Assembly (NCBI GenBank): GCA_007693585.1
Contig: REDH01000108.1
Coordinates: 1-35,457, forward strand
Source of the DNA: Deltaproteobacteria bacterium
Lineage (GTDB): Bacteria > Myxococcota_A > Bradymonadia > REDH01
Direction: 5' to 3'
Length of the DNA stretch: 35,457 nucleotides
Each line of letters opens with the position of its first letter. The stretch's first letter is position 1. Shown piece after piece: positions 2,868-35,457 of the stretch. The position numbers and the translations under genes were made by a program. Below the pieces are notes generated by a model. It did not search any database, was not told where the DNA came from, and was given only the letters and a program-made list of their open reading frames with translations.

Positions 2868-2879
2868 GGGTCGAAGGCT

Positions 2880-5225: not shown

Positions 5226-5271
5226 GGTTGCAGGGCGGTGTCGGGGCCGTGGAGCGGCATTGAACGGATCG

Positions 5272-5300
5272 ATTGTCGCGCCGGTGGGTTCTGGTTGCAA
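5272..5300 (-). promoter_or_regulatory. Candidate promoter for the double-GGDEF gene
   Basis: On the minus strand TTGCAA (5300-5295) and GACAAT (5277-5272) are 17 bp apart. This would give a 5' untranslated region of about 40 nt before the ATG at 5225. The same GACAAT -10 sequence precedes the UPF0262-like gene. Confidence 0.5.
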
Positions 5301-5534
5301 TCGCCCTGCGGCGACCCGGTGCGCACTGTGCCGGATGGGTACAGGGGCGGGGTGGTGTGGTGCGGGCGCAGGCGGCGGTACGAGCCGGGGGGGCCGGGTG
5401 TCGCGGCGACGGCCATGCACGGCCCGCGCATCCACCGGGGCCGTTGTCTCGGGCCGTGCGGTGCCGGGCACGTGTCTGCGCCGAGCGGGGTGGCCCGGAC
5501 CGGGACCGCACGGGGCGTCGGTCGCGGGCCGTGC

Positions 5535-5563
5535 TGGACAGGGCACCGGGAACGGCGGACAAT
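5535..5563 (+). promoter_or_regulatory. Candidate promoter for the UPF0262-like gene
   Basis: TGGACA at 5535-5540 and GACAAT at 5558-5563 are 17 bp apart, matching the sigma-70 consensus at 5 of 6 and 4 of 6 positions. Transcription would begin near 5570, about 37 nt before the ATG. The rest of the 381-bp gap between the divergent genes (5226-5606) shows nothing further. Confidence 0.55.
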
Positions 5564-5606
5564 GGGCGCGGTGCGCGGGGATGGGAAGTCCTCCGGGGAA
5601 CGAACG

Positions 5607-6101: not shown

Positions 6102-6206
6102 CGGTACCGCCGAGGTTTGTGGTGCTTCCAGGTTGCGCGCCGGGGGGCCCCAGGTTGATGACCTGGTCGGACTGACGGTACCGCCGAGGTTTGTGGTGCT
6201 TCCAGG
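6097..6206. repeat. 36-bp direct repeat pair
   Basis: An identical 36-bp sequence starting ACTGACGGTACCGCC and ending GTGCTTCCAGG occurs at 6097-6132 and 6171-6206, a period of 74 bp. The first copy contains the stop codon of the UPF0262-like gene. The 38 bp between the copies hold a small inverted repeat CAGGT-TGATG-ACCTG at 6151-6165. The copies may be remnants of a local duplication of the 3' end of the gene. Confidence 0.85.
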
Positions 6207-6211
6207 GGCCG

Positions 6212-6350
6212 TGCGGAGGAGGCCCTGGCCGCGGGGGTCGTTCTTCATGCCGCCGCGGCAGGGTGGGGCGTCGGGTGGTCCGCCGCCCTGCGGAGGAGGC
6301 CCTACCCGCGGGGGTCGTTCTTCATGCCGCCGCGGCAGGGTGGGGCGTCG
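6212..6350. repeat. 62-bp direct repeat pair, REP-like
   Basis: Two nearly identical 62-bp copies lie at 6212-6273 and 6289-6350, a period of 77 bp. Each starts TGCGGAGGAGGCCCT and ends GGCAGGGTGGGGCGTCG. CCCTGCGG at the left of the second copy and CCGCGGCAGGG at the right form an imperfect inverted pair, so each unit could fold like a REP element. The second copy overlaps the 3' end of bolA and supplies its stop codon. Confidence 0.8.
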
Positions 6351-6628
6351 AGTTGTGGGCCCCCGCTTTCGGCCCACTGCGCCGGGGTGACGGCCTCGAT
6401 GGCGAGGGCGTGGACGCCGCCGGCCAGCTCCTCGGCGAGGAGGGCGTTGATGCGGCGGTGCCGGGCGACGCGGGTCATGCCCTCGAACTCGGGGCTGACG
6501 GCGATGACGCGGAAGTGGGTCTCGGAGCCGGCGGGGACGTTGTGTCCGTGGCTCTCGTTGAGGACCTCGAGGTGTTCCAGGGCGAGACCGGCTTCGAGCT
6601 TGCGGGTGATCGACTCGTGCAGGCGCAT
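6302..6628 (-). CDS. bolA: BolA-family protein with repeat-derived C-terminal tail
   Basis: The 108-residue product matches BolA/IbaG proteins, small class II KH-like proteins that partner monothiol glutaredoxins in iron-sulfur trafficking and can act as transcription factors in the cytoplasm. Characteristic stretches are an N-terminal MRLHESITRKLEAGL, the LEVLNESHGHNVPAGSETHF region with its conserved His residues, and a C-terminal RHRRINALLAEELAGGVHAL. The family core ends at about TPAQWAES. The last ~18 residues, including CRGGMKNDPRG, are encoded by the 62-bp intergenic repeat and are unlikely to be ancestral. It is divergent from the acyl-CoA dehydrogenase gene, and each has its own candidate promoter. 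Confidence 0.9.
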   Translation of the reverse strand: MRLHESITRKLEAGLALEHLEVLNESHGHNVPAGSETHFRVIAVSPEFEGMTRVARHRRINALLAEELAGGVHALAIEAVTPAQWAESGGPQLDAPPCRGGMKNDPRG

Positions 6629-6744
6629 GGGCAGTCCGTGGGGTTGGGGGCGAACGGTCGTTCGGGGGAGCGGCGTGCCTGGGTGGGCGAGCGGTGGTCG
6701 CGCGTGGTCGGTGGCCGGGTCCTGTCGCGCCGCGCGTGCGGCGG

Positions 6745-6773
6745 GGGATAGGCGTGGCCGGTCGGCCCGGCAA
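6745..6773 (-). promoter_or_regulatory. Candidate promoter for bolA
   Basis: On the minus strand TTGCCG (6773-6768) and TATCCC (6750-6745) are 17 bp apart. This nearly repeats the mdh promoter. The 5' untranslated region would be about 110 nt, long enough to carry control elements, though none is recognised. Confidence 0.5.
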
Positions 6774-6779
6774 TGCCCC

Positions 6780-6808
6780 TTTCGCATGGCGGGCATCGGG
6801 CGTACTGT
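6780..6808 (+). promoter_or_regulatory. Possible promoter for the acyl-CoA dehydrogenase gene
   Basis: TTTCGC at 6780-6785 and TACTGT at 6803-6808 are 17 bp apart, back to back with the bolA promoter. The -35 match is weak, so this is a lower-confidence call. Confidence 0.3.
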
Positions 6809-6888
6809 CGGGCCGCCGGGCGTGGTCGGACCAATTGTGGATCGCGGCAGCCGGCGAGGCGTTTCCCCGACAGGAGACCGAGGACGAC

Positions 6889-8541
6889 ATGAGCGCAATC
6901 GACGACGGACGAGAGGATCTGGCCCGCTGGAAGGCGGAGCAGCCGGACAATTTCTTCACGGCGGACGTGGTGTTTCGCCACGCGCTGCAGCGGCTGGCGG
7001 GGGAGGAGACGTGGGCGTCGCTGCGTCCGCGGCTCGAGGCGTTCGGCGCGCAGTGCGCGACGGAGATGGATGCGGCGGCGGACGTGAACAACCGTCCGCA
7101 CAACCTGCCGTTGCTGGAGCGGTATGACGCGATCGGTCGGCGCACGGAGGGGGTGGAGCATCATCCGAGCTACCACGTGGTGGGGCGGCTGATCTACGAG
7201 AGCGGGATGATGGGGGAGTATGCGGAGCCCGGAGGGTTCCTGCGCTCCCTGGCGTTCTTCCACCTGTCGTCGATGTGCGGGGAGGCGGGGCACAACTGTC
7301 CGGTGGCGTGCACGGCGGGGATCATCAAGAGTCTGCAGGCGCTGGGCACGCCGGAGCTGAAGGCGCGCTATCTTCCGCGGCTGCTTTCACGGGTGTACGC
7401 GGAGCGGTACGACGGGGCGCAGTTCCTGACGGAGGTGCAGGGGGGGAGCGACGTGGGGCTGAACGCGGTCCGTGCGGAGCGGGCGGAGGATGGCACCTGG
7501 CGGATTCATGGGGAGAAGTGGTTCTGCTCGAACGCGGACGCGGACCTGATTCTGATGACGGCGCGTCATGACGAGGCGGTCGGGGGGACGCGGGGTCTGG
7601 GGTTGTTCCTGGTGCCGCGTCTTCTGGAGGACGGGAGTGTGAACGCGTTCCGGATCCGTCGCCTGAAGGACAAGCTGGGCACGCGGTCGATGCCGAGCGG
7701 GGAGATGGACTTCGAGGGGGCGCGGGCGTGGGCGCTCGGGGAGGTGGAGGAGGGGTTCCGGAGCATGATGCGCTTCGTGATCAACACATCGCGGATCTAC
7801 AACGCGATCGCGGTGACGGGGATTGCGCGTCGCGCTGCGTTCGTGGCGGGGGGATATGCGCGTCACCGGAAGGCGTTCGGTCGCCGGATCGGGGACTTTG
7901 CGCTGGTGCGGGAGACGGTGGATCGGATCGAGGCGAGCTCGGCGGCGATCGCGCTGGGCACGTGGGCGCTGATCCCGATGATGGATGCCGCGGAGCAGGG
8001 TGGGCTGTCGGACGAGGAGGCGGCGTTTCTGCGGATGGCGATCAACGTGAACAAGCGGCGCAGCTCGATCACGGCGACGGAGTGTGCGCTCCAGGGGATC
8101 GAGGTTCTGGGGGGAAACGGGGCGATCGAGAGCTTCTCGATCCTGCCGCGGCTGCTGCGGGACGCGATCGTGTGCGAGAACTGGGAGGGGACGCACAACA
8201 CGCTGACGGCGCAGGTGCTCCGGGACATGCACCGCTACCGGTTGCACGAGGCGTACGTGGCCCAGCTTCGGCGGCGTTTCGCGTCGCTGGAGGGCGGCCC
8301 GATGGGGGCGTGGGCGTCGCGGGGAGCGCGGGCGGTGGACGGGCTCGAGGGTTCGCTCGCGGAGGTGCTGACGCTGGACGAGGATGCGGCGTCGCTGCGG
8401 ATGCGGCCGCTGATGGATCGGCTGGCGTGGGTGCTGTACGCGTCGGCGATGGCGGAGCAGGCGGCGTACGACGCGGAGGCGGGTCTGGGCGACGAGGTGT
8501 CGCGCCTGCTGGCGTTCTACGCGGACTGGCGGGGGATCTGA
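6889..8541 (+). CDS. AidB-like acyl-CoA dehydrogenase family protein
   Basis: The 550-residue product is an acyl-CoA dehydrogenase-family flavoprotein of the long AidB-like type (E. coli AidB has 541 residues). The middle domain motif TEVQGGSDVGLNAV corresponds to AidB's TE.QGGSDV, followed by the beta-domain segment WRIHGEKWFCSNADADLIL. The C-terminal helical domain includes YARHRKAFGRRI and the ending LGGNGAIE...LPRLLRDAIVCENWEGTHN typical of the family. It is expected to bind FAD. In AidB the role is linked to alkylation resistance and DNA binding; whether this homologue oxidises an acyl-CoA or does something else cannot be read from sequence. The ATG has GAGG six bases upstream. It converges on mdh across a 267-bp gap. 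Confidence 0.85.
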   Translation: MSAIDDGREDLARWKAEQPDNFFTADVVFRHALQRLAGEETWASLRPRLEAFGAQCATEMDAAADVNNRPHNLPLLERYDAIGRRTEGVEHHPSYHVVGRLIYESGMMGEYAEPGGFLRSLAFFHLSSMCGEAGHNCPVACTAGIIKSLQALGTPELKARYLPRLLSRVYAERYDGAQFLTEVQGGSDVGLNAVRAERAEDGTWRIHGEKWFCSNADADLILMTARHDEAVGGTRGLGLFLVPRLLEDGSVNAFRIRRLKDKLGTRSMPSGEMDFEGARAWALGEVEEGFRSMMRFVINTSRIYNAIAVTGIARRAAFVAGGYARHRKAFGRRIGDFALVRETVDRIEASSAAIALGTWALIPMMDAAEQGGLSDEEAAFLRMAINVNKRRSSITATECALQGIEVLGGNGAIESFSILPRLLRDAIVCENWEGTHNTLTAQVLRDMHRYRLHEAYVAQLRRRFASLEGGPMGAWASRGARAVDGLEGSLAEVLTLDEDAASLRMRPLMDRLAWVLYASAMAEQAAYDAEAGLGDEVSRLLAFYADWRGI

Positions 8542-8620
8542 GGCGCGTCCCGCTGGAGGCCTGGTCGGCGGGGCGGGCGAACCGGATGTGTCCTCGCGCG
8601 GTTGGGGCGCGGGGTGTCGC

Positions 8621-8670
8621 GTCCCGTCGCGTCCCGTCGCGTCCCGTCGCGTCCCGTCGCGTCCCGTCCC
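8621..8670. repeat. Decamer tandem repeat, five copies
   Basis: GTCCCGTCGC repeats at 8621, 8631, 8641 and 8651, with a variant GTCCCGTCCC at 8661. It lies in the 267-bp non-coding gap between the convergent dehydrogenase and mdh genes. No other feature is seen in this gap. Confidence 0.9.
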
Positions 8671-8808
8671 GTCGTGTTCGGTTGGCGGGGCGTTCCCGGC
8701 GTCGCGCGGTGTGGTGCGCTGTCGCGTTCGGGCGGTGGGGTGCGCCGGGCGTCGCGTTGTGGTGTTCTCCCCCGGTGGGGAGGGTGTGCGGGCCCGGTTG
8801 CCGGGTGC

Positions 8809-9798
8809 TCAGGCGAGCATGTCCTTGACGGCGTCGCGTTCGGAGACGAGCTCTTCGGTGGTCTTCGCGAGGGCGGCCTGGCTGAAGTCGTTGAGCTCGA
8901 TGCCCTGGACGATCTCGTAGGTCCAGGGTGCGGTGATGCGGCAGGGGAAGGAGAAGATGAGTCCTTCGGGGATGCCGTAGGAGCCGTCGGAGGGGATGGC
9001 CATGGAGACGTAGTCTCCGGTCATGGCTCCGGTGGCCCAGGAGAAGATGTGGTCGATGGCCGCGGAGGCGGCGGAGGCGGCGGAGGACTTTCCGCGGGCC
9101 TGGATGATTTCGGCGCCGCGCTTCTGGACGCGGGTGAGGAAGTCGCCCTTGAGCCAGTCGTGGTCGGAGATGGCTTCGGTGACGGGTGTGCCGTCGATGG
9201 TGGCGTTGAAGAAGTCGGGGTACATGGTGGGGGAGTGGTTGCCCCAGATGGCGAGGTTCTTCACGGAGGCGACGGGCTTGCCGGCCCTTGCGGCGAGCTG
9301 TGCCATGGCGCGGTTCTGATCGAGCCGGGTCATGGCGTGGTAGTTGGCCTTGCTGGTGCGCGTGGCGCGGGAGGCGGCGATGAGGCAGTTGGTGTTGCAG
9401 GGGTTTCCGACGACGAGGACCTTGACGTCCTTGCTGGCGGAGCGGTCGATGGCCTCGCCCTGTCCGATGAAGATCTTGCCGTTGTCCTTGAGGAGGTCGG
9501 CCCGTTCCATGCCGGGTCCGCGGGGCTTGGCGCCGACGAGGATGGCGATGTCGGCGTCGCCGAAGCCTTCGTCGGGGTCGGAGGCGACCTTCGTTCCGGC
9601 GAGGAGGGGGAAGGCGCAGTCTTCGAGCTCCATGACGACGCCGCGGCAGGCGTCGAGGGCGACGGGGAGGTCGATGAGGTGGAGGATGACGGGCTGGTCG
9701 GGGCCGAGCAGGTCGCCGTTGGCGATGCGGAAGAGGAGGCTGTAGTCGATCTGGCCTGCGGCGCCGGTGACGGCAACGCGAACGGGGCTCTTGCTCAT
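8809..9798 (-). CDS. mdh: Malate dehydrogenase
   Basis: The 329-residue product is a malate dehydrogenase of the cytosolic/Thermus-like group, interconverting malate and oxaloacetate with NAD in the TCA cycle. Seen are the dinucleotide-binding start [11 protein letters not shown]43 after LHLI at the end of the second strand (which favours NAD), the substrate-binding loop [13 protein letters not shown] (R93, R99), GNPCNTNC at 131-138, D160 and R163, and the catalytic H188 in [13 protein letters not shown]. One oddity is D18 in GQIDYSLLF, where relatives have Gly or Ala. The start has a good AGGGAG ribosome binding site. A candidate promoter lies about 70 bp upstream, so it is probably transcribed alone although it follows the sulfatase gene. 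Confidence 0.95.
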
Positions 9799-9914: not shown

Positions 9915-11279
9915 TCAGCGACCGGTTCCGACGCGTCTGCTGTAGGCGAGGAAGTGGTCGAAGTGTCCGAGGAGGGTGGTGCGCAGTTCGGGGTCGAGCT
10001 CGACGTCGTGTACGGGGCAGGCGTCCGGGGGGAGGACTTCGAAGAGGGACTCGGCCTGGTCGCCGGCGATGCGGGAGCGGAGCCACTGGGTGTTGCGGAG
10101 GACGTACTTGTGGTGGTCGGCGATGAAGGCGAACTGGTTGAACCGGTACTGGGGCAGGGTCTTGTTGTCCTTGTTGTACCAGTAGCTCTCCTGGATGGGC
10201 AGGGAGCGTTCGGGTTCGGCGACGACGTCGACGGGGTCGTCGGGGGTGTCGAGTTGTCCGGCGGCGAGGAGTGTGCCGTGGATGTGACGTGCGCTGACGG
10301 GGGTGTGGATGGTCCGCGGTTCGGCGTCGGGGGGGAGGGCGTGGAAGAGGACGTGTGTGCCGGCGTCGTTGACGTTGCTGAAGTGGTATTCCCAGTTCTG
10401 TTCGCCGAAGTTGTCGCCGTGGTCGGAGCCGAAGAAGACGTGGTTTCCGGTGTCTTCGTGCATTTCCTGGAGGAAGGCGTCGATCATGGGGGCGAGGCGG
10501 TTCCATGCGCGCCGTTGTCGGTCGCGGAGGGCGAGGAGCATGGGGGGCGCGATCACCTCGCGGTCGACGGTGAGGCGGGTCTGGTTGGCGAGGTGGAAGA
10601 GGCTGACGATCTCCTTCGCTCTCCAGATGACGCCGTCTCGGGAGGGTTCGAAGGTGTCGGCGATGTGGTAGGGGAAGTGGCTCTCCATGAGGTTGATGAA
10701 GAGGAAGGCCTTCTGGCCGCGGTTCTCGCATTCGCGGAGGATGCGCCGGGCCATGTCGAACTGCATCTCGGCGTTGGACTGCATCCAGGAGCGCGCGGCG
10801 TTCACGTCTTCGGCGAGTCGTCCGGCGACGAAGTCTTCGGTGTCGGTGAGGAGCTTTCGTCGGATGCGGGGTCGGGCGAGGATGGAGAGGATGGTGTCGA
10901 CGAGTCCGTGGCGTCTGTCGGCGAGGGTCCAGACGCGGTGGACCTCGTCGAAGCCGCGGTCGAGGCCGAAGATGTGGGTCGTGGCGGGGTTGGCGGTGAT
11001 CTGGACGGTGCGGTACCCGGCGTCGCGGTAGCGTTCGGCGACGGTGGGGACATCGCGGGAGATGTCTCGCGTCTGGGTGGTGGCCCCGTGCTCGGAGGGG
11101 AGCAGGCCGGTGAACATGGACCCGGTGGCGGGCAGGGTCCAGCAGCCGGCGGAGCGCATCTGCGAGAACCGGGTGGAGCGGGACTCGGTGTAGGGCAGCG
11201 TCGCCTGGCCTGCGAGGTGGGCGCTGTCGTAGCGAAGGCTGTCCGCGACGAGGAAGATCACATGGCCGTCCGCCGGCAT
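9915..11279 (-). CDS. Sulfatase/alkaline-phosphatase-superfamily protein
   Basis: The 454-residue product begins directly with the sulfatase fold: [13 protein letters not shown] at 7-19 provides the first metal-binding Asp (D13). The nucleophile region is [13 protein letters not shown] at 46-58. T48 occupies the place of the Cys/Ser that is converted to formylglycine in true sulfatases, and the usual Arg two residues after the Pro is Thr. The second metal site is [11 protein letters not shown]. This points to a phosphodiesterase/phosphotransferase or Thr-nucleophile member rather than an aryl sulfatase. No signal peptide or membrane anchor is seen, so it is probably cytoplasmic. No ribosome binding site is visible, but the domain leaves little room for a later start. 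The substrate is unknown. Confidence 0.8.
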
Positions 11280-11335
11280 GGCGAGTCCGTGAGGAAGGAG
11301 GGGTCATGTCCCCCGGGGCGCCGGAGGCGGGCGGA

Positions 11336-11365
11336 GGGCTACCACAGCCATGCGCGCGCGCGCAA
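11336..11365 (-). promoter_or_regulatory. Possible promoter for the sulfatase-like gene
   Basis: On the minus strand TTGCGC (11365-11360) and TAGCCC (11341-11336) are 18 bp apart, about 57 bp before the start codon. The -35 overlaps a CG-alternating run, so it may be chance. Confidence 0.3.
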
Positions 11366-11448
11366 CGCGGGGATTGGGGGTCGACGCCTCCGGCTCGGAG
11401 CCCGGCGCCTGCGCGCAACGCGAGGATTGCGGCGGAAGCGTCCGGTGC
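11355..11448. repeat. Imperfect direct repeat carrying two promoter-like segments
   Basis: CGCAACGCGGGGATTG at 11361 recurs as CGCAACGCGAGGATTG at 11414, 53 bp apart, and the similarity continues as GACGCCTCCGG versus GAAGCGTCCGG. The first copy overlaps the minus-strand promoter candidate and the second the plus-strand one. The 310-bp gap 11280-11589 otherwise holds only the promoter and hairpin listed next. Confidence 0.55.
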
Positions 11449-11455
11449 CCAGCAT
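11427..11455 (+). promoter_or_regulatory. Candidate promoter for the lipoprotein gene at 11590
   Basis: TTGCGG at 11427-11432 and CAGCAT at 11450-11455 are 17 bp apart. Transcription would start near 11462, inside the adjoining perfect inverted repeat, leaving a leader of about 130 nt. Confidence 0.4.
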
Positions 11456-11456
11456 C

Positions 11457-11477
11457 CCCGCACCGGCGCGGTGCGGG
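11457..11477. promoter_or_regulatory. Perfect 8-bp inverted repeat at the predicted transcription start
   Basis: CCCGCACC and GGTGCGGG flank a 5-base loop GGCGC. It lies directly after a candidate -10 element. No T-run follows, so it is more likely an operator or a 5' leader hairpin than a terminator. Confidence 0.45.
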
Positions 11478-11589
11478 TTGTCCGGCCCGCGCTCGCGACG
11501 GCTCCGCGCCGCGTCTCCTGCCGTCGCGGTTCCTTCCGTCGCGGGGTGCTCGCACCCGGTCCGCTTCCTCGTGCCTCCCACCGTCCGTC

Positions 11590-13080
11590 ATGATGGTTCG
11601 ATCCCCTTCGCCGCTTCGTACGTTCTCCCTGTGGCTCGTGTGCCGGTCGCTGCTGCGGGCGGTGGCGCTCCTCGCGCTGGTCGGGGGGTGCAACCGGGAG
11701 GGTCCTCGGGAGCGTTCCGGGCCGCCGGAGGCGGTGGAGCAGGCGATGGAGTCGACGGAGGCGCCGGGGGAGAGCGGGGCGCTCGCGGAGGACCCCGTGG
11801 AGCTGGTTTCGCCGCCGGGCCTGCGGGCGCGGGGGCGGGTGATGTCGGTGCCGGATCGGCTGCGCGCCCGGCTGATCGAGGCGATTGTTCCGCTCGACGA
11901 CGGTGCGCTGGTGGCGACGCTGGACGTGCGGCCGCCGCGCGCGGACATCCGGGTGTATCGCCTGGGTTCGGCGTCGGGCGGGGCGTTTCTCGAGCCGGTG
12001 GGGGAGGAGGCCCTCGGCGTGGGGCGGGTGCGGTCGACGGTGCCGCGGCTCGTTCCGCTCGCGGGGCAGGGGCTCGCGGTGTTCCAGTCCCTCGACTTCC
12101 TGTCGGAGGTCGACAAGGAGCGGGCGTTGCTGCAGTGGTGGGCGTCCGGCGAGTCGGGGCGGCTCGATGGTCCGGATGTGCTCCCGCTGCCGGAGGGTTT
12201 CCTGCTGGGGCGCGAGGTCTCGATGGGCGCGGTGGGCCGGCACGTGGCGCTGTGCGGCTCGCGGGTGGCGGACCTCGACTCGCTGGAGGACGAGGTGATC
12301 GAGGATGTGTACTGCGGGCTGTGGGCGCCGGGGGAAGGGCGATGGGTGAGCCCGCTGGAGCCGGTGGTGCGGGGGGGGAACGGCATCGTCCAGTTCGATG
12401 TTCTGGGTGGTGGCGAACACGGCGCGTTCCTGCTCCGGGTCGAGGCGGACGGGGAGGGGTGGCGTCCCCACGGCACGCTGCTGCTTCCGCCGGAGGAGGA
12501 CGGCCAGCCCATGCGGGTCGTGGAGCTGGGCGAGCTGTCCGGGGAGGCGCTCGGTGCGGGTCGCTCGTCGTTCGTCTGGAGCACGCCGCCGCTCGCGAGT
12601 GTCGGGCCGGACACGGCGGCGTACTATCTGCCGCGGGTGGGGGATGACCCGGCGCGTGGGGGGCAGGTGCTCCGCAGCGGCGAGCGGCTGGGTGATCGCC
12701 GGCAGCTCCCGTCCTGGCCGGCCCGCACCGAGCGGGCGGTGATGCTGCCGGGAGCGGAGGGGCATCTCATGCTCTTCGACTCCCTCGGTCCGCGGGGGGA
12801 GCGGACGCTGGTGCGTTTTGCGGAGGCCGGCATCCACGCGATGGACTACTGGACCCCGCTCGACACGGCGGATCATGCGGCGATGGCCCGGCTGGGGGCG
12901 GCCACCGCCGGGGTGGTGGCGATGGTGCAGGACGTGGGGGATCGTCCGGGCGTGATCAGCGTGCTCGAGGGGGCCTCGTTGCTGGCGCGCCCGCCGGCGG
13001 CGGAGGAGGGGGGCGGGGAGGACGCGGTCCCGCTTCCGGAGGATGCGGACGCGGAGAAGGAGAATCCGGACGGGCCGTGA
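11590..13080 (+). CDS. Unknown lipoprotein
   Basis: The 496-residue product has a basic N-terminus, a hydrophobic stretch ([14 protein letters not shown]) and a lipidated cysteine at residue 34, so it should be an envelope lipoprotein. After a Glu/Pro/Ser-rich linker (about 36-80) follows a long region rich in beta-strand-like segments with repeated Arg-Val-Tyr and Gly-Arg patterns, perhaps a propeller, but no family is recognised. The C-terminal 30 residues are acidic. Two adjacent ATG codons (11590 and 11593) can serve as start, and neither has a clear ribosome binding site. It is divergent from the sulfatase-like gene. The 260-bp gap after it (13081-13340) shows no feature. Confidence 0.7.
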
Positions 13081-24651: not shown

Positions 24652-27600
24652 ATGAAGTCCCTCACCGTGCCCACCGCCCTGTCCAGGGCCGTCTTCGTTG
24701 CCCTGACCTGTGCCGCGCTCGCCTTCGCCTGCGGCGGCTCGGATTCCGATCCGGCCACCTCGGCGTCGTCGGAGACGGATCCGTCCGGAACGTCCGGGGG
24801 CGTGGACCCGACGGGCACGGAGGATCTGTGCGGCAACGGCGTGCTCGATCCCGGCGAGAGCTGCGACGGCGCTGACCTGGGTGGCGTGACCTGCGGCAGC
24901 CTTGGCTTTGATGGCGGGACCCTGGCGTGCACGGCCGAGTGCGCGTTCGATACATCGGGCTGTGTTCGGGAGACCACCGGCCCCTCCTGCGGCAACGGTG
25001 TGATCGAGGGGGACGAGGCGTGTGACGGTGCGGATCTGGGTGGGGAGACGTGCGAGGGTCTGGGTTTCGACGGGGGCACGCTGTCGTGCGCGTCGGACTG
25101 CACGTTCGACACGGCGGGCTGTGATGCGGCGCCCTCGTGCGGCAACGGTGTGATCGAGGGGGACGAGGAGTGCGATGGCGCGGAGCTGGGCGGGGAGACG
25201 TGCGAGGGACTGGGTTTCGACGGGGGCACGCTGTCGTGCGCGTCGGACTGCACGTTCGACACGGACGCGTGCACGCGGGAGCCGTTCTGCGGGGACGGGG
25301 TGGTGAACGAGGATCTGGGGGAGGAGTGCGATGACGGCGAGGCGAACAGTGACCGGCTGCCCAACGCGTGCCGCACGGACTGTACGCTGCCGCGGTGCGG
25401 GGACGGGGTGATCGACGATGGCGAGCAGTGCGACGACGGGGACGCCAACGGCCCGGACGCGCCGTGCTCGGAGGCGTGCACGATCAATCCGCAGGCGGCC
25501 TGTGCGGGCAACGGCGCGGTGACGGATCTGCTGGAGGTGGCCGCGGAGCAGGAGGATGGCTCGCTGCTGGTCGTCGGCGAGCTGGCGTCGATCGTCGGGG
25601 ACTCCTTCGCGACGGCGGCGTGTGGTCCGGCGGCGGCGACGCGTCGGCAGCTCTTCTTCGTGACCGCGCCCGAGGCGGGGCTGTGGGAGTTCTCGCTGGT
25701 GGACGAGCGGACGACGGCTGCTGCGGCGCTGATCGCGATCGAGGGTTGCGATGCGGATGCCCTGCGGCTCGCGTGCACGGACGCGGACACCACGGGTCGG
25801 CTGCTGATCGAGGCCGGGGAAGGGCAGGCGTTCTTCCTCGCGCTGGAGGCGGAGGGCACGGCCCGTGCGTTCGGGCTGCAGGCCCGGCTGCTCGAGGGTC
25901 TGGCCGGGGAGGGCGAGGCGTGCGGTGCGTCGGTGGCGTGCGAGGATGGTCTCCTGTGCGCGGGCGCGGACGGTGAGGAGCGCTGCATCGATCCGGACTC
26001 GGCCACGCTGGAGAGCGTCGAGGTGCTGCTGCCCACCCCGGACCTCTTCGTGATCGAGATGCGCGGTCAGGATCCGGGCCGGTTGCTGGATCTCGTGCAC
26101 ATCGAGCAGCTCCTGCTCGCCGGGGACCTGGGCCAGGCCGGGGACCTGACGTTCCCGCCGGACGTGCTGCTCCGGGACGGGGACGGCTACCTGATGCGCC
26201 TGTTCCTTCCGGTGGACGTGTTCGACGAGCCGGAGGACGGGTTCGTGATCGGCATCGAGGGCTTCGAGAGCATCACCGTGGCCGCGGAGAGCGGCCGCAC
26301 GGGTCAGCGCACCGCGTCGCGGACGGCCCCCTTCCCGTCCGAGGACGACCTGCTCGTCCCGGAGGAGGCCGAGAGCGGTGGTCCGTGCGACCTCGAGGGC
26401 TACCTCTTCGTGTGTCCGGAGGGCGAGGCCTGCGGTGAGGTCGACGGGGCGTTCCTGTGCGGGGAGCCCGCCGCGCCGGTGCTCGATCGGGTGACCGCGG
26501 TCCGCACCGCACTCAACGCCGTGCGCATCACCATCGACGGCCGCGACGAGAACGCGGACGTGGTCGAGCTGAGCCTGTCGCTCTACCGTCCGGGCGAGGA
26601 GGAGCCGGCGTTCACCTACGCGCCGCTCGCCCTGGGGGATGCGCTGCGCGGCCAGCGCTCGTTCACCTGGAGCATCACCGCCGACGAGGCCCGCTTCAAC
26701 GGGCTGCTCAACGCCACGGATCCCGCGTTCGGCTTCGACCGCATCGCGGTCATGCTCACCGACGCCACCGGCCTGACCTCGGAGACCGTCTTCGTCGACT
26801 ACCCCGCGGTGGAGGTGCTCGAGCCCGGCGCGTCCTGCGACCTGCAGCGGGTGCGGAACGTCTGCCCCGAGCCTCAGGTCTGCGGACGCATCTCCGCCAC
26901 CGAGGCGCGCTGCGGTGCGCCGGTCGCGCCCGAGGTCCGCGGCGTGACCTACACCATCGACGACGACGGCATCACGCGCGTCAGCGTCGAGGGCTTCCAC
27001 GCCAACGCCAACGTCACGGGCTTCGATCTCTTCTTCCGCGTCGCCGATCCCGCCTCCCCGGAGGAGGAGTTCATCGGTCTCGCCGAGCGCCCCGCCACGG
27101 ACATGACCCCGAACCCTGCCGGGCGGACCTCGTTCGTGGCCGCCCTGCCTGCCCTGAACCTCGGCGACTTCGAGCTGACGTCCATCCTCGTGCGCCTGCG
27201 GTCGGGCGCCCTCCAGAGCCCGTTCTTCGAGGTCCCGTTCTCCCCCGTGCCCGCGGGAGGTGAGTGCGATCCCGCGCTCGAGTTCAACCCCTGCGCCGCC
27301 GGCAGCACCTGCGCCGCCGGGACCTGTGAGCCCGCCGCTCCCCCGGTGCTCGTCGCCGCAGCCCTCGAGCGCCCCGCCGCCGACCGCATCCGCTTCCGGG
27401 TCGAGGGGGAGGACCCCAACGGGGACGTGGCCTTCCTCGAGCTCGCCATCCAGCGCGCCAACGGCACCACCTTCGGGCAGTTCTCCGAGACCTTCGACGA
27501 CCCCGGGGTCGACGGACTGACCGCCTTCGAGGGCACCGTCACGATCGAGGGCTTCCAGAACGAGCCCACCACCACCGCGTTCGTCGTGCGCCTGCGCGAC

Positions 27601-30600
27601 CGCGCCGGCCTGCACAGCGAACACGCCGTGGTCAACCTCCCCCCCATCATTCCCGTCGGCGGAACCTGCGAGGACGGAACCGGGGTCACCGACGTCTGCG
27701 CCCTCGGCGCCCTCTGCGAGGAGGGGGTCTGCGTCCCCGACGTCACGCAGGACGCCTGCGCCGGCGACAACCTCATCGACTTCGCGACCGCCGCCAGCGG
27801 CGGCAACGGCGAGACGCCCTCGGTGGTCGTGCCCGCCGAGGGGCGCCTCAACCTCGACCCCTTCCCCTGCGCTGCCCCCGTCAGCCGCGGGCGCGTCGTG
27901 CGCTTCGTCGCCCCGGTCACCGGTGACCTGCAGGCCGACGCCACCCGCATCTCCGGAAACGCCGATCCCGTCCTCGCCGTCTCCCGGGACGCCTGCGACG
28001 CGGAACCCTTCGCCTGTCACGACGACGTGGCCTTCCCCGACAACCTCGACAGCCGCCTCGTCTTCCCCGTGAACGCCGGCGATGTCCTCTACTTCCGCGT
28101 CGGCGACTGGGAGTCCGGCGGCGACATCCGCCTCGCCATCGCCGTCGAGGAGGACACCTGCGGCAACGGCATCATCGACGACGGTGAGGACTGCGACGGC
28201 GATGACCTCGGCGACGCCACCTGCGCCACCGTCGGCTTCGACGAAGGCACCCTCGCCTGCACCGCCACCTGCACCTTCGACACCTCGGGCTGCACCCGCG
28301 ACGGCTTCTGCGGGGACGGCGTCGTCGACCCCGGCGAGCAGTGCGACGACGGCGAGGCCAACGGGCCCGACGCCCCCTGCTCCGAGACCTGCACCCTCGA
28401 CCCGGTCGCCGACTGTGCCGGCCAGGGCGACGTGCTCGACTTCGTCGCCGTCGCCGAGCTGCAGGAGGATGGCTCGCTCCTCCACACCGGGACCCTCGCC
28501 CCCCTCGCGGGCGAGGCCTTCTCGACAGCCGCCTGCGGCGGCGAGAGCACCAGCCTCCGCGCCCTGTACTTCATCGAGGCCCCCGTCGACGGCACCTGGG
28601 AGTTCAGCCTCGTGGACGAGCGCACCAGCGCCAGCGCCGCCCTCATCGCCCTCGACCGCTGCCACGCCGACGCCCGGCAGATCGCCTGCGACGACGGCGG
28701 AAACGCCTCCCGCGTCCTCATCGACGCCCTCGAGGGCGACGCCCTCTACCTCGCCCTCGAGAGCGACGACATCGGCCAGGCCTACGCCCTCCGCGGACGC
28801 CTGATCGACGGCACCGCCGCCGGCCTCGGCGAGGCCTGCGACGAGGACACCCCCTGCGACACCGGGCTGGCGTGCAGCCCGCGCCCCGAGAGCAGCGTCT
28901 GCGCCTCGTCCGCCGGGATCAGCCTCGAGTCCCTCACCATCCGGGCCCCGGACAGCGAGACCTTCCTGATCGACGCCCGCGGCACCGACCCCGCACACCT
29001 CGTCGACCAGCTCTTCGTCTCCCAGCTCGCCGTCGCCATCGGGACCGCCAGCAACTTCGTCCTCGAACCCGACGCCATCCACCGCGACGGCGACCAGTTC
29101 ACCCTCCGCGTCGTCCTCCCGGTGAGCATCTTCGACACCGACGCCATCTCCCTGGGCATCGACGACTTCAACACCCTCACCGCCGCCGTCGAAGCCACCG
29201 CCCTCGGCTGGCGCAGCCCCTCGCGCACCGCCGCCTTCCCCGCCGCCTCCGCCGTCGCCGATCCCCAGCCGGTCGAAGAAGGCGAAGGCTGCGACCTCGA
29301 CCGACTCCTCTTCCTGTGCCCCGACGGTCAGGCCTGCGACGGCGAGGAAGCCCCCTTCGCCTGCGCCGACGCACAGGCCCCCACCCTCCTCGACGCCACC
29401 GCCACCCGACTCTCCGGCACCAGCATCCGGTTCGACCTCCGCGGCACCGACCCCAACGGCGACATCACCACCATCGTCCTCGCCGCCTACCGGCCCGGCT
29501 CCACCGAGCCCGACCTCACCCTCGACCCCATCGACGTCGAGAACGCCATGCGCGGACAGCGCGAGATCCACTACACCTTCCGGGGCGACGGCGGATTCTT
29601 CTCCGCGCAGCTCAACGCCACCGCACCCGAGTTCGGCTTCGACCGCATCGGCCTCCTCCTCGTCGACGCCACCGGCCTCGCCTCGGACGTCGTCGTGATC
29701 CCCTACCCCTCCGCCGACCCCCGCGCCACCGGCGAGCCCTGCGACCTCACCGGCGCCTCCACCTGGTGCGAGGCCCCCGGCACCGCGTGCACGGCCCTCC
29801 CCTCCGGCGACGCCACCTGCGCCGCCTTCCCCGCGCCGGAAGTGCGCGCCCTGCGCGCCACCCTCACCGAAGGCGTCGCCAGCATCCGCATCGAAGGCGC
29901 CCACGCCGCCGCCAGCGTCGAAGGCGTCGAGGTCATCTTCCGGCTCGCCAACCCGCCCAACCCCGAGACCCCCTTCATCGGACTCGACGAGTTCCCCGCC
30001 ACCGAGCTCGCCCCCGCCCCCGCAGGACGCACCCACTTCACCAGCGACCTGCCCCCCATCAACCTCGGCGGCAACGAGGTCGTCACCGCCGCCGTCCGCC
30101 TGCGCGCCGGAAACCTCCGCAGCCTCTACCTCGAGGTGCCCTTCAATCCCCTCGCCGCCGGCGCCACCTGCGACGCCTCCCTCGGCTACAACCCCTGCGA
30201 CAACGGCCTCACCTGCACCGCAGGCACCTGCTCCGCCGCCAACGCACCCACCCTCACCACCGCCACCATCACCCGACCCCGCGCCGACGCCTTCGACATC
30301 GCCGTCGCCGGCCTCGACCCCGATGGCGACATCGACGGACTCGAATACATCCTCCGACGCGAGGTCGGCACCGTGTTCGGCTCCTTCTTCGAACCCTTCG
30401 ACCCCCCCGTCGACGGACAGCAGGAGATCGACGCCACCGTCCGCATCGAAGCCGCCTTCCTCGCCAGCGAACCCGCCTCCACCACCCTCGAAGTCCGCCT
30501 GCGCGACCGCAGCGGACGCGTCAGCAACGCCATCGTCCTCGCCCCACCACCGGTCATCCCCGTCGGCGGCACCTGCGTCGAAGGCACCGGACTCGTCGAC

Positions 30601-31065
30601 CTCTGCACCGGCGATGCCACCTGCATCGAGGACGTCTGCGTCCTCCCCGACGGCGCCGGACTCTGCGACCCCGACAACATCATCGACTTCAACGACACCG
30701 CCACCCCCGACGAGGACACCGGCACCCTCGGCGTCCTCATCGCCCCCGACGCCTACTTCCCCAGCACCCCCTTCTCCTGCGCCGCCCCCGTCAACACCGC
30801 GCGCGCCATCCGCTTCGTGCCCGACACCACCACGACCTGGACCATCACCGCCAGCGCCGTCGACGGTACCGCCGACCCCGTCCTCTCCGCCGCCGCACTG
30901 ACCTGCGACGCCGAACCCTTCGTCTGCAACGACGACATCGACTTCCCCGACATCCTCGACAGCGAGCTCCGCATCGAGAGCACCGCCGACGAACCCATCT
31001 GGCTCTTCGTCGGCAACTGGGAAACCACCGGCACCATCCGGCTCTCCATCCAGGCCGACGACTGA
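24652..31065 (+). CDS. Giant secreted protein with Myxococcus cysteine-rich (DUF4215-type) repeats and two homologous halves
   Basis: The 2137-residue product has an N-terminal export signal with a possible, non-ideal lipobox (LAFAC, C27) and a Ser/Thr/Gly linker. Next come five cysteine-rich units with the pattern CG(N/D)GV..(G)E.CD(G/D), typical of Myxococcota surface proteins. Two homologous ~880-residue halves follow: half A from about 25501 to 28149 and half B from 28414 to the end, each preceded by cysteine-rich units. Each half contains, in order, a pre-peptidase-C-like beta domain (QEDGSLL...WEFSLVDERT), cysteine-bounded modules with R(I/F)...G.DPNGD(V/I) patterns, and a final PPC-like domain (CDAEPF.C.DD..FPD.LDS). 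The protein is very acidic. An extracellular binding or structural role is inferred. The GH1 gene follows 50 bp later. Confidence 0.85.
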   Translation: MKSLTVPTALSRAVFVALTCAALAFACGGSDSDPATSASSETDPSGTSGGVDPTGTEDLCGNGVLDPGESCDGADLGGVTCGSLGFDGGTLACTAECAFDTSGCVRETTGPSCGNGVIEGDEACDGADLGGETCEGLGFDGGTLSCASDCTFDTAGCDAAPSCGNGVIEGDEECDGAELGGETCEGLGFDGGTLSCASDCTFDTDACTREPFCGDGVVNEDLGEECDDGEANSDRLPNACRTDCTLPRCGDGVIDDGEQCDDGDANGPDAPCSEACTINPQAACAGNGAVTDLLEVAAEQEDGSLLVVGELASIVGDSFATAACGPAAATRRQLFFVTAPEAGLWEFSLVDERTTAAAALIAIEGCDADALRLACTDADTTGRLLIEAGEGQAFFLALEAEGTARAFGLQARLLEGLAGEGEACGASVACEDGLLCAGADGEERCIDPDSATLESVEVLLPTPDLFVIEMRGQDPGRLLDLVHIEQLLLAGDLGQAGDLTFPPDVLLRDGDGYLMRLFLPVDVFDEPEDGFVIGIEGFESITVAAESGRTGQRTASRTAPFPSEDDLLVPEEAESGGPCDLEGYLFVCPEGEACGEVDGAFLCGEPAAPVLDRVTAVRTALNAVRITIDGRDENADVVELSLSLYRPGEEEPAFTYAPLALGDALRGQRSFTWSITADEARFNGLLNATDPAFGFDRIAVMLTDATGLTSETVFVDYPAVEVLEPGASCDLQRVRNVCPEPQVCGRISATEARCGAPVAPEVRGVTYTIDDDGITRVSVEGFHANANVTGFDLFFRVADPASPEEEFIGLAERPATDMTPNPAGRTSFVAALPALNLGDFELTSILVRLRSGALQSPFFEVPFSPVPAGGECDPALEFNPCAAGSTCAAGTCEPAAPPVLVAAALERPAADRIRFRVEGEDPNGDVAFLELAIQRANGTTFGQFSETFDDPGVDGLTAFEGTVTIEGFQNEPTTTAFVVRLRDRAGLHSEHAVVNLPPIIPVGGTCEDGTGVTDVCALGALCEEGVCVPDVTQDACAGDNLIDFATAASGGNGETPSVVVPAEGRLNLDPFPCAAPVSRGRVVRFVAPVTGDLQADATRISGNADPVLAVSRDACDAEPFACHDDVAFPDNLDSRLVFPVNAGDVLYFRVGDWESGGDIRLAIAVEEDTCGNGIIDDGEDCDGDDLGDATCATVGFDEGTLACTATCTFDTSGCTRDGFCGDGVVDPGEQCDDGEANGPDAPCSETCTLDPVADCAGQGDVLDFVAVAELQEDGSLLHTGTLAPLAGEAFSTAACGGESTSLRALYFIEAPVDGTWEFSLVDERTSASAALIALDRCHADARQIACDDGGNASRVLIDALEGDALYLALESDDIGQAYALRGRLIDGTAAGLGEACDEDTPCDTGLACSPRPESSVCASSAGISLESLTIRAPDSETFLIDARGTDPAHLVDQLFVSQLAVAIGTASNFVLEPDAIHRDGDQFTLRVVLPVSIFDTDAISLGIDDFNTLTAAVEATALGWRSPSRTAAFPAASAVADPQPVEEGEGCDLDRLLFLCPDGQACDGEEAPFACADAQAPTLLDATATRLSGTSIRFDLRGTDPNGDITTIVLAAYRPGSTEPDLTLDPIDVENAMRGQREIHYTFRGDGGFFSAQLNATAPEFGFDRIGLLLVDATGLASDVVVIPYPSADPRATGEPCDLTGASTWCEAPGTACTALPSGDATCAAFPAPEVRALRATLTEGVASIRIEGAHAAASVEGVEVIFRLANPPNPETPFIGLDEFPATELAPAPAGRTHFTSDLPPINLGGNEVVTAAVRLRAGNLRSLYLEVPFNPLAAGATCDASLGYNPCDNGLTCTAGTCSAANAPTLTTATITRPRADAFDIAVAGLDPDGDIDGLEYILRREVGTVFGSFFEPFDPPVDGQQEIDATVRIEAAFLASEPASTTLEVRLRDRSGRVSNAIVLAPPPVIPVGGTCVEGTGLVDLCTGDATCIEDVCVLPDGAGLCDPDNIIDFNDTATPDEDTGTLGVLIAPDAYFPSTPFSCAAPVNTARAIRFVPDTTTTWTITASAVDGTADPVLSAAALTCDAEPFVCNDDIDFPDILDSELRIESTADEPIWLFVGNWETTGTIRLSIQADD
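24829..25290 (+). repeat. Cysteine-rich repeat units, ~150-bp period
   Basis: TGCGGCAACGG starts units at 24829, 24988 and 25138. The second and third are exactly 150 bp apart and almost identical at the DNA level over most of their length (for example the run encoding EGLGFDGGTLSCASDCTFDT). The first is more diverged. This looks like a recent in-frame duplication of a 50-residue module. Confidence 0.85.
25501..31062 (+). repeat. ~2.65-kb internal duplication within the giant gene
   Basis: Half A (about 25501-28149) and half B (about 28414-31062) encode proteins that align from start to end with almost the same length. Paired landmarks are CAGNGAVTDL / CAGQGDVLDF, WEFSLVDERT in both, GQRSFTWSI / GQREIHYTF, IPVGGTC in both, and CDAEPFACHDD / CDAEPFVCNDD. 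DNA identity is clearly lower than protein similarity, so the event is old. Confidence 0.85.
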
Positions 31066-32759: not shown

Positions 32760-32808
32760 GGGGGACGGACGGGCCGGAACGGGCGCGCAAGCCCCGACGA
32801 TGACGAGC

Positions 32809-32852
32809 GCGGCACGTTACGTGCCGCTCTCTCCGAATTCCGGACCTTTTTC
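32809..32852 (+). terminator. Possible terminator after the GH1 gene
   Basis: GCGGCACGT and ACGTGCCGC form a near-perfect dyad at 32809-32827. A run of five T lies 20 bases further on (32847-32851), too far for a classical intrinsic terminator. It sits between GH1 and the cas genes and could separate the two units. The remaining 32853-32980 shows only a ribosome binding site. Confidence 0.35.
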
Positions 32853-32980
32853 GGCGTCCGCGCTTGCCGTGCAGGGGAGCTCTGGCTCAGGTCGGGGGCA
32901 GAGCCTCCCGTTGCGCCCACTCTCCCGAGCGGGCCCCGCATGTCCCTGTGGAGGCTGAACCTTGCACTGGGAGGTTGGTG

Positions 32981-34684
32981 ATGGAGACGCACGACGAGGA
33001 GTCGGGACGGGGCGATCTGGTGGCGGTCCGGGACGTGAACGCCCATGTGTTCTGTCCGAGGCTGTTCTGGCTGAAGCACGTGGAGGGCATCTGGCTCGAC
33101 AACGAGCACACCATCGAGGGGCGTCACGTGCATCGGCGCGTGGATCGTCCGGGCGGGCGCATGCCGGCGCCCGGCGAGGGCGACGCCTCCGCTGGCGATG
33201 ATGCTGCCTGGGAGACGCGGTCGCTGTGGCTCTCCAGCACCGCGCTGGGGGTGACCGGACGCATCGATCTCGTGGACACCCGCGGGGATGGGCGGGTGAT
33301 GCCCGTGGACACCAAGAAGGGACGGTCCGATGACGGGGCGCTGTGGGCCCCCGATCGGGTGCAGCTCGTGCTGCAGGCCCTCCTGTTGCGGGAGGCGGGG
33401 TACCGGGTGGAGGAGGTGGCTGCCTGGTACCATGCGGAGCGTCGTCGTGTGGTGGTGGCGCTCGATGACGCGCTGGTCGCGGAGGCGGAGGCGGCGGTGG
33501 AGGCCGCGAGGGTCACGCGGGAAGGGGAGCGGGCGCCGGAGCCGCTGGTGGGCTCGCGGCGCTGCATGGGGTGCTCCCTGAACGCGGCGTGTCTTCCCGA
33601 CGAGGTGCGTCGGCTCGCGGTGGCGGAGGAGCTGCGGGAGCCGGACGCGGAGGTGCGGCGGGTCGTTCCGCCGCGGGCGGACCGGATCCCGCTGTACGTG
33701 CAGCAGCAGGGTGCCACGGTGCGCCTGTCGAAGGAGGAGGTCGTGGTCCAGCCGCGATCCGGCGAGGAGGGCGCGGAACGGCGGGTGGGCCTGGGTCATC
33801 TGGGTCAGATCAACGTGTACGGCCAGGTGCATGTCACGGGGCCGGTGTTGCGGGAGTGCATGGATCGGGGGGTGGATCTGAACTTCTTCAGTCAGGGCGG
33901 GTGGTACCGGGGCCGGGTGGTCTCGACGCGCAATCGTCAGGTGCATGTGCGTGCGGCGCAGTTCGGGGCCGTGGGGACGGCGTCGGCGCTCGTGGTGGCG
34001 CGGCGGCTGGTGGCGGACAAGGTTGCGAACGGGCGGACGCTGCTGCGGCGCAATCGCGGCGAGGCGCTGGACGAGGACGTGTTGCGGGATCTGCGGACGG
34101 ACGGGCGACTGGCGCTGGAGGCCGAGAGCGCGGGGAGCCTGCTGGGCCATGAGGGCACGGCGGCGCGTCGCTACTGGGGGGCGTACAGCGATCTGGTGGG
34201 ACGGGAGGGCGACGCGTTCCGGTTGCGGGGGCGGACCCGCCGGCCGCCGCGGGATCGAACGAACGCGATGCTGTCGTATGCCTACGGGATGCTGACGAAG
34301 GACTGTGTGCTGGCGGTGGAGGCGGTGGGTCTGGATGCGCACTGCGGGTTGTACCACACCGCGCATCATGGTCGGCCATCGATGGCGCTGGATCTGATGG
34401 AGCCGTTTCGTCCGCTGGTGGTGGACTCGGTGGTGCTGCAGCTGGTGCGGCGCCGCGAGCTGGGGGAGGGGGACTTCATCGTGGCGGGCCAGGAGGTGCG
34501 GTTGAAGCCGCGGTCCCGTCGGGTCCTGATCCGTGCGTACGAGCGGCGGATGGACGAGACGGTGACGCACCCGGAGTTCGGGTACGCGATCACGTATCGG
34601 CAGTTGTTGCAGGTGCATGCGCGCCTGGTGGTGCGCTACCTGCTGGGCGAGCTGGAGTCGCCCCCTTCCTTTCGGACGAGGTGA
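32981..34684 (+). CDS. cas4-cas1: Cas4-Cas1 fusion (CRISPR adaptation)
   Basis: The 567-residue product fuses Cas4 (about 10-210) to Cas1 (about 235-560). Cas4 is an iron-sulfur nuclease that selects and trims prespacers with the right PAM. Its four cluster cysteines are visible (C25 in VFCPRLFWL, then C195, C198 and C204), with the RecB-type nuclease residues D96 (GRIDLVD), D110 and K112 (VDTKKG). Cas1 is the integrase. It shows SQGGWYRGR, E391 in GHEGTAARRYWGAY, H459 in GLYHT and D471/E474 in ALDLMEPFRP as the metal-binding set. Cas4-Cas1 fusions are best known from type I-G (formerly I-U). GGGAGG lies six bases before the ATG. The cas2 start follows the stop by 3 bp, so they form an operon. 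Confidence 0.97.
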   Translation: METHDEESGRGDLVAVRDVNAHVFCPRLFWLKHVEGIWLDNEHTIEGRHVHRRVDRPGGRMPAPGEGDASAGDDAAWETRSLWLSSTALGVTGRIDLVDTRGDGRVMPVDTKKGRSDDGALWAPDRVQLVLQALLLREAGYRVEEVAAWYHAERRRVVVALDDALVAEAEAAVEAARVTREGERAPEPLVGSRRCMGCSLNAACLPDEVRRLAVAEELREPDAEVRRVVPPRADRIPLYVQQQGATVRLSKEEVVVQPRSGEEGAERRVGLGHLGQINVYGQVHVTGPVLRECMDRGVDLNFFSQGGWYRGRVVSTRNRQVHVRAAQFGAVGTASALVVARRLVADKVANGRTLLRRNRGEALDEDVLRDLRTDGRLALEAESAGSLLGHEGTAARRYWGAYSDLVGREGDAFRLRGRTRRPPRDRTNAMLSYAYGMLTKDCVLAVEAVGLDAHCGLYHTAHHGRPSMALDLMEPFRPLVVDSVVLQLVRRRELGEGDFIVAGQEVRLKPRSRRVLIRAYERRMDETVTHPEFGYAITYRQLLQVHARLVVRYLLGELESPPSFRTR

Positions 34685-34687
34685 GCC

Positions 34688-34981
34688 ATGGAGCGGAACG
34701 TGTATGTGGTGACGTACGACATTGCGGACGATCGGCGTCGGACGGCGGTGTACCAGTATCTGCGGGGCTGGGGGGACCACCTTCAGTACTCGGTGTTTCG
34801 GCTCGTGCTCCATCGTGCGGATCGGATGCGGGTGCGCACGACGCTCCACGATCTGATCGATCATGGGGTGGACCAGGTGCTGTTCCTGGATCTGGGTCCG
34901 TTCGAGGGTCGGGCGCGTGGATCGGTGGACGCGATTGGTGTAGCCTACACGCACCCGGAGCGTCATGCGGTGGTGGTGTAG
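34688..34981 (+). CDS. cas2: Cas2, CRISPR adaptation subunit
   Basis: The 97-residue product has the Cas2 ferredoxin-like start VYVVTYDIADDRRRTAVYQYL, with the conserved Asp at residue 10, then LQYSVFRLVL and VLFLDLGP. Cas2 is the dimeric scaffold that joins two Cas1 dimers in the spacer-integration complex. It lies 3 bp after the Cas4-Cas1 stop and ends 196 bp before the first CRISPR repeat. Length is normal for the family. Confidence 0.97.
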   Translation: MERNVYVVTYDIADDRRRTAVYQYLRGWGDHLQYSVFRLVLHRADRMRVRTTLHDLIDHGVDQVLFLDLGPFEGRARGSVDAIGVAYTHPERHAVVV

Positions 34982-35043
34982 CGCAGATGCGAGCGTGCCG
35001 GTGCCGCCCGGACCCGTGGTTGCGCTCGCACTGCTCGTAATCC

Positions 35044-35072
35044 TTGACAATCGAAGAGAATTCGGGTACGTT
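35044..35072 (+). promoter_or_regulatory. CRISPR leader promoter candidate
   Basis: A perfect -35 TTGACA at 35044-35049 and TACGTT at 35067-35072 are 17 bp apart. They sit in the leader between cas2 and the first repeat and point into the array; transcription would begin about 100 bp before repeat 1. The leader (34982-35177) is visibly less GC-rich than its surroundings around this site. Confidence 0.6.
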
Positions 35073-35177
35073 CCCCCCATGGTTTCGCTGCTTCACAGCC
35101 CTCGATTGGTCGTTTCGGCGCAGGCGCTCGCAAAGTGCTTGTCAGGACCCCGAGGTCCGGTCGAAAATGCGCGGGCT

Positions 35178-35457
35178 CTTTCCCCCGCCTCACGGCGGGG
35201 GCCCCATTGAAGCAGGCCACACTCAACGAGATGGTGGCGATGGTCGAAGCTTTCCCCCGCCTCACGGCGGGGGCCCCATTGAAGCCCCGGCGTGACGTGG
35301 TATCCACCGGGGAGCGTGCCCCACTTTCCCCCGCCTCACGGCGGGGGCCCCATTGAAGCCCCCATCCCGTCCTCTCGCACAGCTCCTCGTAGCTGCTTTC
35401 CCCCGCCTCACGGCGGGGGCCCCATTGAAGCATCTTCGACTCGATCCTGTCGTCGCC
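35178..35457 (+). CRISPR. CRISPR array, four 36-bp repeats visible, truncated by the window end
   Basis: Identical 36-bp repeats lie at 35178-35213, 35250-35285, 35324-35359 and 35396-35431. Each starts CTTTCCCCCGCC and ends CCCCATTGAAGC. Inside is a perfect hairpin CCCCCGCC-TCAC-GGCGGGGG, and the ATTGAAGC end fits an 8-base crRNA 5' tag for transcription on the plus strand. Spacers are 36, 38 and 36 bp; a fourth is cut after 26 bases. With the leader on the cas2 side, the first spacers should be the newest. All repeats are the same, so the array appears active rather than decaying. Confidence 0.98.

What the first reader, a model, noticed from the sequence alone, without database searches (positions are those of the whole stretch)
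32760..35457. CRISPR adaptation module with no effector genes on its upstream side
A Cas4-Cas1 fusion, Cas2, a leader and an array of perfect repeats are all present. The gene directly upstream is an unrelated GH1 lipoprotein in a different transcription unit. In type I-G loci, where this fusion is best known, cas3, csb and csx17 genes usually lie upstream of cas4-cas1. Either the effectors lie beyond the array, or this is a stand-alone adaptation unit serving another locus or an undescribed effector. All motif residues of Cas4 and Cas1 appear intact.
Basis: partly seen in the sequence, partly recalled or inferred. Interest (0 to 1): 0.75.

Follow-up and report, generated by a model that had tools for sequence, protein, structure and literature searches.

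The report
Split type I-G CRISPR-Cas locus
The 'orphan' CRISPR adaptation genes at the window's end are one half of an ordinary type I-G immune locus cut by an assembly gap inside its repeat array; the missing effector genes lie on the contig that carries the other end of the array, and the only new thing seen is a short palindrome that sits in front of every CRISPR operon found in this genome.

Summary
In detail: Cas4g/Cas1g fusion (32981-34684), Cas2 (34688-34981), leader, and four perfect 36-bp repeats running off the window. The 'no effectors' impression is an assembly artefact. The same repeat occurs ten times in the genome: four at the end of this contig (C18) and six at the start of contig C51, which holds the leader-distal end with a truncated last repeat. 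C51 then carries hipBA and, on the opposite strand, a complete type I-G effector operon csb1-csb2-cas3g-cas8g with overlapping start and stop codons. Convergent, array-separated layouts also occur in a closed chromosome of the same class and in a long contig of the same phylum. Gene order, 36-bp '-TTGAAGC' repeat and TA genes inside I-G loci are published. Two secondary points: the Cas4-Cas1 belongs to a clade of Csx17-type loci although its effectors are Cas8u1-type (module exchange); and the palindrome CGGCACGNTACGTGCCG occurs exactly four times in 5 Mb, each upstream of a CRISPR operon (both I-G modules, III-B cas10/cas6, PrimPol-cas1-cas2): a candidate shared operator. The C18-C51 join is inferred, not sequenced.

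The parts
32809..32827 (.). Perfect 19-bp palindrome GCGGCACGTTACGTGCCGC, 153 bp before cas4-cas1; candidate operator shared with the other CRISPR operons of the genome
   Evidence: core CGGCACGNTACGTGCCG occurs 4 times in 4.97 Mb, each upstream of a CRISPR operon; function inferred
32981..34684 (+). cas4-cas1 fusion (Cas4g/Cas1g), 567 aa
   Evidence: NF049935 631.8 bits; PADLOC Cas1g; 7mi4 alignment
34688..34981 (+). cas2 (Cas2g), 97 aa
   Evidence: TIGR01573 over cut-off; PADLOC Cas2g E=2e-26
34982..35177 (+). Leader; promoter-like TTGTCA-18-GAAAAT at 35139-35168
   Evidence: position between cas2 and first repeat; consensus scan only
35178..35457 (+). Leader-proximal part of the CRISPR array: 4 identical 36-bp repeats, 3 full spacers and a cut one; the array continues on contig C51 from base 1 to about 513 (a cut repeat, 6 full repeats, a degenerate last repeat)
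   Evidence: repeat hairpin

Best explanation
This is the adaptation half of one complete type I-G (formerly I-U) CRISPR-Cas locus. Order: cas4-cas1, cas2, leader, array, hipBA, then the effector operon csb1-csb2-cas3g-cas8g pointing back toward the array; the window and the assembly contig break within the array. Mechanism: Cas4-Cas1 with Cas2 selects PAM-bearing prespacers and inserts them next to the leader beside cas2; the array transcript folds into repeat hairpins that Csb2 cleaves 4 nt after the stem, leaving an 8-nt 5' handle (ATTGAAGC); the Csb1 (Cas7) backbone, Csb2 and Cas8g form Cascade with the crRNA, and Cas3g cuts the target. Gene content, repeat, hairpin, handle geometry and motif residues are shown here; C18-C51 continuity is strongly inferred; the biochemical steps are taken from studied relatives.
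For: The repeat is found with up to 3 mismatches only ten times in the 4.97 Mb genome: 4 at the end of C18, 6 at the start of C51, same strand and identical. C18 holds the leader end; C51 has no leader and ends in a truncated repeat, so the two ends complement each other. C51: cas8g 2571-3494, cas3g 3491-6568, csb2 6565-8331, csb1 8328-9578, all on the minus strand, adjacent genes overlapping by 4 bp; Cas3g 749 bits, Csb2 219 bits, Csb1 72.5 bits, Cas3-extension 309 bits, all over cut-off, PADLOC Cas3g/Cas56g/Cas7g/Cas8g. Cas3g keeps GAGKT, DEVH, SAT and an HD motif. Precedents: G036 (closed chromosome, same class) cas3g-csx17-csb1-csb2 (+), array, then cas2 and cas4-cas1 on the minus strand; G089 csb1-csb2-cas3g-cas8g (+), array, minus-strand cas2 and cas4-cas1. 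The repeat folds as an 8-bp hairpin + CCCC + ATTGAAGC, the cleavage geometry published for type I-G (PMC9638904); the -TTGAAGC tail and csb1-csb2-cas3-cas8u1 order are published for myxobacterial I-G (PMC11237760).
Against: No single contig spans the array, so the join is not sequenced. C18 ends in a spacer and C51 begins within a repeat, with no overlap beyond the repeat itself, so the number of missing units is unknown. A separate array of the same repeat on C51 is not strictly excluded. No spacer had a convincing viral match.
Confidence: 0.94

Rival explanations
1. A stand-alone adaptation unit that feeds a distant I-G effector locus or the genome's type III-B system; C51 is a different array with the same repeat.
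For: The genome also has type III-B genes (Cas10, Cmr3, Cmr1 and a Cas6). Scattered I-G arrays with one repeat are known in myxobacteria (PMC11237760).
Against: All ten repeats sit at two complementary contig ends, one with leader and one without. A second Cas1/Cas2 pair that could serve III-B is on C167. Relatives show the same array-separated layout in one piece.
Confidence: 0.04
2. An adaptation module serving an undescribed effector.
For: Only that no effector lies upstream in the window.
Against: A complete I-G effector operon on the contig with the array's other end; matched subtype of Cas1g, Cas2g, Csb1, Csb2, Cas3g and Cas8g.
Confidence: 0.01
3. Modules of mixed origin: the adaptation module and array belong to a Csx17-type I-G lineage and were joined to a Cas8u1-type effector operon, which would account for the rearranged order. 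This is compatible with the best explanation rather than exclusive of it.
For: Cas4-Cas1 groups with three Csx17-type loci (G016, G021, G036) at 98/98 support, best identities 51-54% against 35-45% for the other full-length cas4g-cas1g relatives. Cas3g splits 100/100 by effector type and the C51 copy falls on the Cas8u1 side. No csx17 in the genome, while the same search finds it in six relatives. G036, in the same Cas4-Cas1 clade, has the convergent layout.
Against: Only 14 loci were compared; Cas4-Cas1 lineage and effector type are mixed elsewhere too (G009 with G029, 91/86), so the pairing may be loose in general.
Confidence: 0.6

Closest known systems
Type I-G CRISPR-Cas, Cas8u1-type of myxobacteria (PMC11237760)
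   Same: csb1-csb2-cas3-cas8u1 order; Cas4/1-Cas2 adaptation; 36-bp repeat ending -TTGAAGC
   Different: Adaptation genes lie on the far side of the array, the effector operon is convergent, hipBA lies between
Type I-G of Thioalkalivibrio sulfidiphilus (PMC9638904)
   Same: Cas3, Cas7/Csb1, Csb2, Cas4-1 families; 36-nt repeat with cleavage 4 nt after the hairpin, 8-nt handle; toxin-antitoxin genes inside the locus; a III-B locus in the same genome
   Different: Large subunit there is Csx17; here the shorter Cas8u1/Cas3-extension family
Cas4/Cas1 fusion of PDB entry 7mi4
   Same: Full-length match, E=2e-119, motif residues kept
   Different: Effector context and large subunit of that system were not compared here

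Membership tests
Type I-G CRISPR-Cas | Cas4g/Cas1g fusion and Cas2 | tested here: met
Type I-G CRISPR-Cas | Csb1 (Cas7g) and Csb2 (Cas5-Cas6 fusion) | tested here: met
   C51:8328-9578 and 6565-8331, over cut-off
Type I-G CRISPR-Cas | Cas3g helicase-nuclease with motif residues | tested here: met
   C51:3491-6568, 749 bits; GAGKT, DEVH, SAT, HD
Type I-G CRISPR-Cas | Large subunit: Csx17 or Cas8u1/Cas3-extension | tested here: met
   Cas8u1-type present (NF049934, PADLOC Cas8g); Csx17 absent
Type I-G CRISPR-Cas | 36-bp repeat with hairpin and 8-nt handle, -TTGAAGC tail | tested here: met
Type I-G CRISPR-Cas | Adaptation genes, array and effectors in one locus | tested here: inconclusive
   Contig ends complement each other and relatives show it contiguous, but no spanning sequence
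Type I-G CRISPR-Cas | Interference and spacer acquisition activity, TTN PAM | not testable with these tools
   No convincing protospacer found
Orphan/stand-alone adaptation module | No effector genes linked to the array | tested here: not met
   Effector operon on the contig with the array's other end

The most novel reading that the evidence does not exclude
All CRISPR operons found in this genome (I-G adaptation, I-G effectors, the III-B cas10/cas6 divergent pair, PrimPol-cas1-cas2) are under one dedicated regulator that binds the palindrome CGGCACGNTACGTGCCG in front of each, so that separate CRISPR types are switched together.
Probability: 0.5. Interest if true: 0.5.

Novelty: new member of a known kind. 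Interest (0 to 1): 0.25.

Why it matters
It removes a false lead: there is no undescribed effector here, only an array broken by assembly, a trap likely to recur in fragmented genomes. It adds an example of I-G loci whose adaptation and effector modules appear to be exchanged and placed on either side of the array. The shared palindrome, if it is an operator, would give a direct handle on how several CRISPR types in one cell are co-regulated.

Tried and rejected
Single-protein scan of genome contigs with Cas4-Cas1: no relatives returned. Spacer matches: one weak hit to a Burkholderia phage portal gene lacks the seed part and was dropped; four spacer starts gave nothing in viral contigs; the tested spacer occurs only in the array. 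Palindrome as a terminator of the preceding gene: rejected for C51 and C43, where it lies between divergent genes. Palindrome as a widely conserved cas operator: 26 exact matches in 84,980 genomes, none near relatives of these Cas proteins; in G036 about 27 near-matches are dispersed and some look intragenic, so outside this genome it is not cas-linked. The first Cas3 tree had one sequence in the wrong frame and was redone.

Full report
What is there. The window is the whole of contig C18 up to its end, in a 4.97 Mb, 223-contig genome (97.7% complete). Its end carries cas4-cas1 (32981-34684), cas2 (34688-34981), a leader and four identical 36-bp repeats that run into the window end. The protein families are the I-G versions (Cas4g/Cas1g 631.8 bits, Cas2g). 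The active-site residues align with those of the solved fusion 7mi4.

Where the effectors are. Searching the whole genome for the repeat with up to three mismatches gave ten copies, all exact and on the same strand: four at the end of C18 and six at the start of C51. C51 starts inside a repeat, has no leader, and its array ends in a degenerate copy at about 492-513, followed by non-array DNA. The two contig ends are therefore best read as the leader-proximal and leader-distal parts of one array that the assembler broke. Beyond the array on C51 come hipB (859-1206) and hipA (1203-2498) on the plus strand, then on the minus strand csb1 (9578-8328), csb2 (8331-6565), cas3g (6568-3491) and cas8g (3494-2571), each overlapping the next by four bases. 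All pass curated cut-offs. The large subunit is the 'Cas3-extension'/Cas8g family that I equate with the published Cas8u1 (inference from size, position after cas3 and the PADLOC name Cas8g), not Csx17, which this genome lacks (the same search finds it in six relatives).

How it works. The repeat folds into an 8-bp hairpin followed by CCCC and ATTGAAGC. For the T. sulfidiphilus I-G system Csb2 cuts four nucleotides after the hairpin to leave an 8-nt handle (PMC9638904); the same geometry fits here exactly. Adaptation by Cas4-Cas1/Cas2 and interference by Csb1-Csb2-Cas8g with Cas3g are inferred from those studied systems.

Layout in relatives. In G017 and G065 the order is collinear, csb1-csb2-cas3g-cas8g-cas4/1-cas2-array. 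In G089 (one 501-kb contig) and in G036 (closed chromosome) the effector operon and the adaptation genes converge on an array that lies between them. G066, in the genus of G089, has adaptation genes and effectors on two contigs that both carry the same repeat, consistent with the same layout broken by its assembly, just as in this genome. In G006 too the adaptation genes and the effectors are on two contigs that both carry the array repeat, although there the effectors run in the array's direction. So a layout in which the array separates the two modules is a recurrent variant. Published surveys describe csb1-csb2-cas3-cas8u1, the -TTGAAGC repeat tail and variable adaptation modules in myxobacterial I-G loci (PMC11237760), and toxin-antitoxin genes within an I-G locus (PMC9638904).

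Module exchange. The Cas4-Cas1 protein groups with three Csx17-type loci (98/98), whereas Cas3g splits 100/100 by effector type with the C51 copy on the Cas8u1 side. The simplest reading is that the adaptation module plus array and the effector operon have different histories. Only 14 loci support this.

A shared palindrome. The strongest dyad in the region between GH1 and cas4-cas1 is GCGGCACGTTACGTGCCGC (32809-32827). A genome-wide scan shows that its core CGGCACGNTACGTGCCG occurs exactly four times: here, at C51:9991 (412 bp before csb1), at C43:6045 (between divergent cas10 and cas6 of the III-B system) and at C167:3187 (before PrimPol-cas1-cas2, at the contig end). About 0.02 copies are expected from base composition. 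I noticed the first two by eye; the other two were found by the genome scan and both fell on the remaining CRISPR contigs, which is hard to explain by chance. In two of the places it lies between divergent genes, so it is not a terminator there. It is not cas-linked in the other genomes looked at, so a lineage-specific operator is the likeliest reading; the binding protein is unknown. The literature search returned coordinate control of several CRISPR types by other means, for example Rsm in Serratia (PMC8450108, abstract).

Verdict. It is an ordinary, apparently complete I-G locus with a rearranged order, in which only the shared palindrome deserves follow-up.

Noticed in passing
window 32809-32827; C51:9991-10009 (L011); C43:6045-6063 (L066); C167:3187-3205 (L108): Palindrome CGGCACGNTACGTGCCG occurs four times in the genome, each upstream of a CRISPR operon: candidate shared operator.
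   Followed up: yes
L108 (C167) 1 to about 3120, minus strand: PrimPol (AEP-TOTE; PADLOC 'adaptation polymerase')-cas1-cas2 cluster on a 3.2-kb contig: a second adaptation module of the CRISPR-associated primase-polymerase kind (compare PMC8211822).
   Followed up: partly
L066 (C43) 1305-7197: Type III-B genes: cas10, cmr3, cmr1 on the minus strand and a divergent cas6.
   Followed up: partly
L011 (C51) 859-2498: hipBA-like toxin-antitoxin pair between the array's distal end and the effector operon; could act as an addiction module for the locus.
   Followed up: no
L011 (C51) 10203-12916: Behind the effector operon: an HNH endonuclease gene and an AAA ATPase matching the candidate defence family PDC-M56A, with a small partner gene: likely a defence island.
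   Followed up: no
window 24652-31065: Very long (2137 aa) cysteine-rich protein with repeated 'CGNGV..GE.CDG' motifs, upstream of the GH1 lipoprotein.
   Followed up: no
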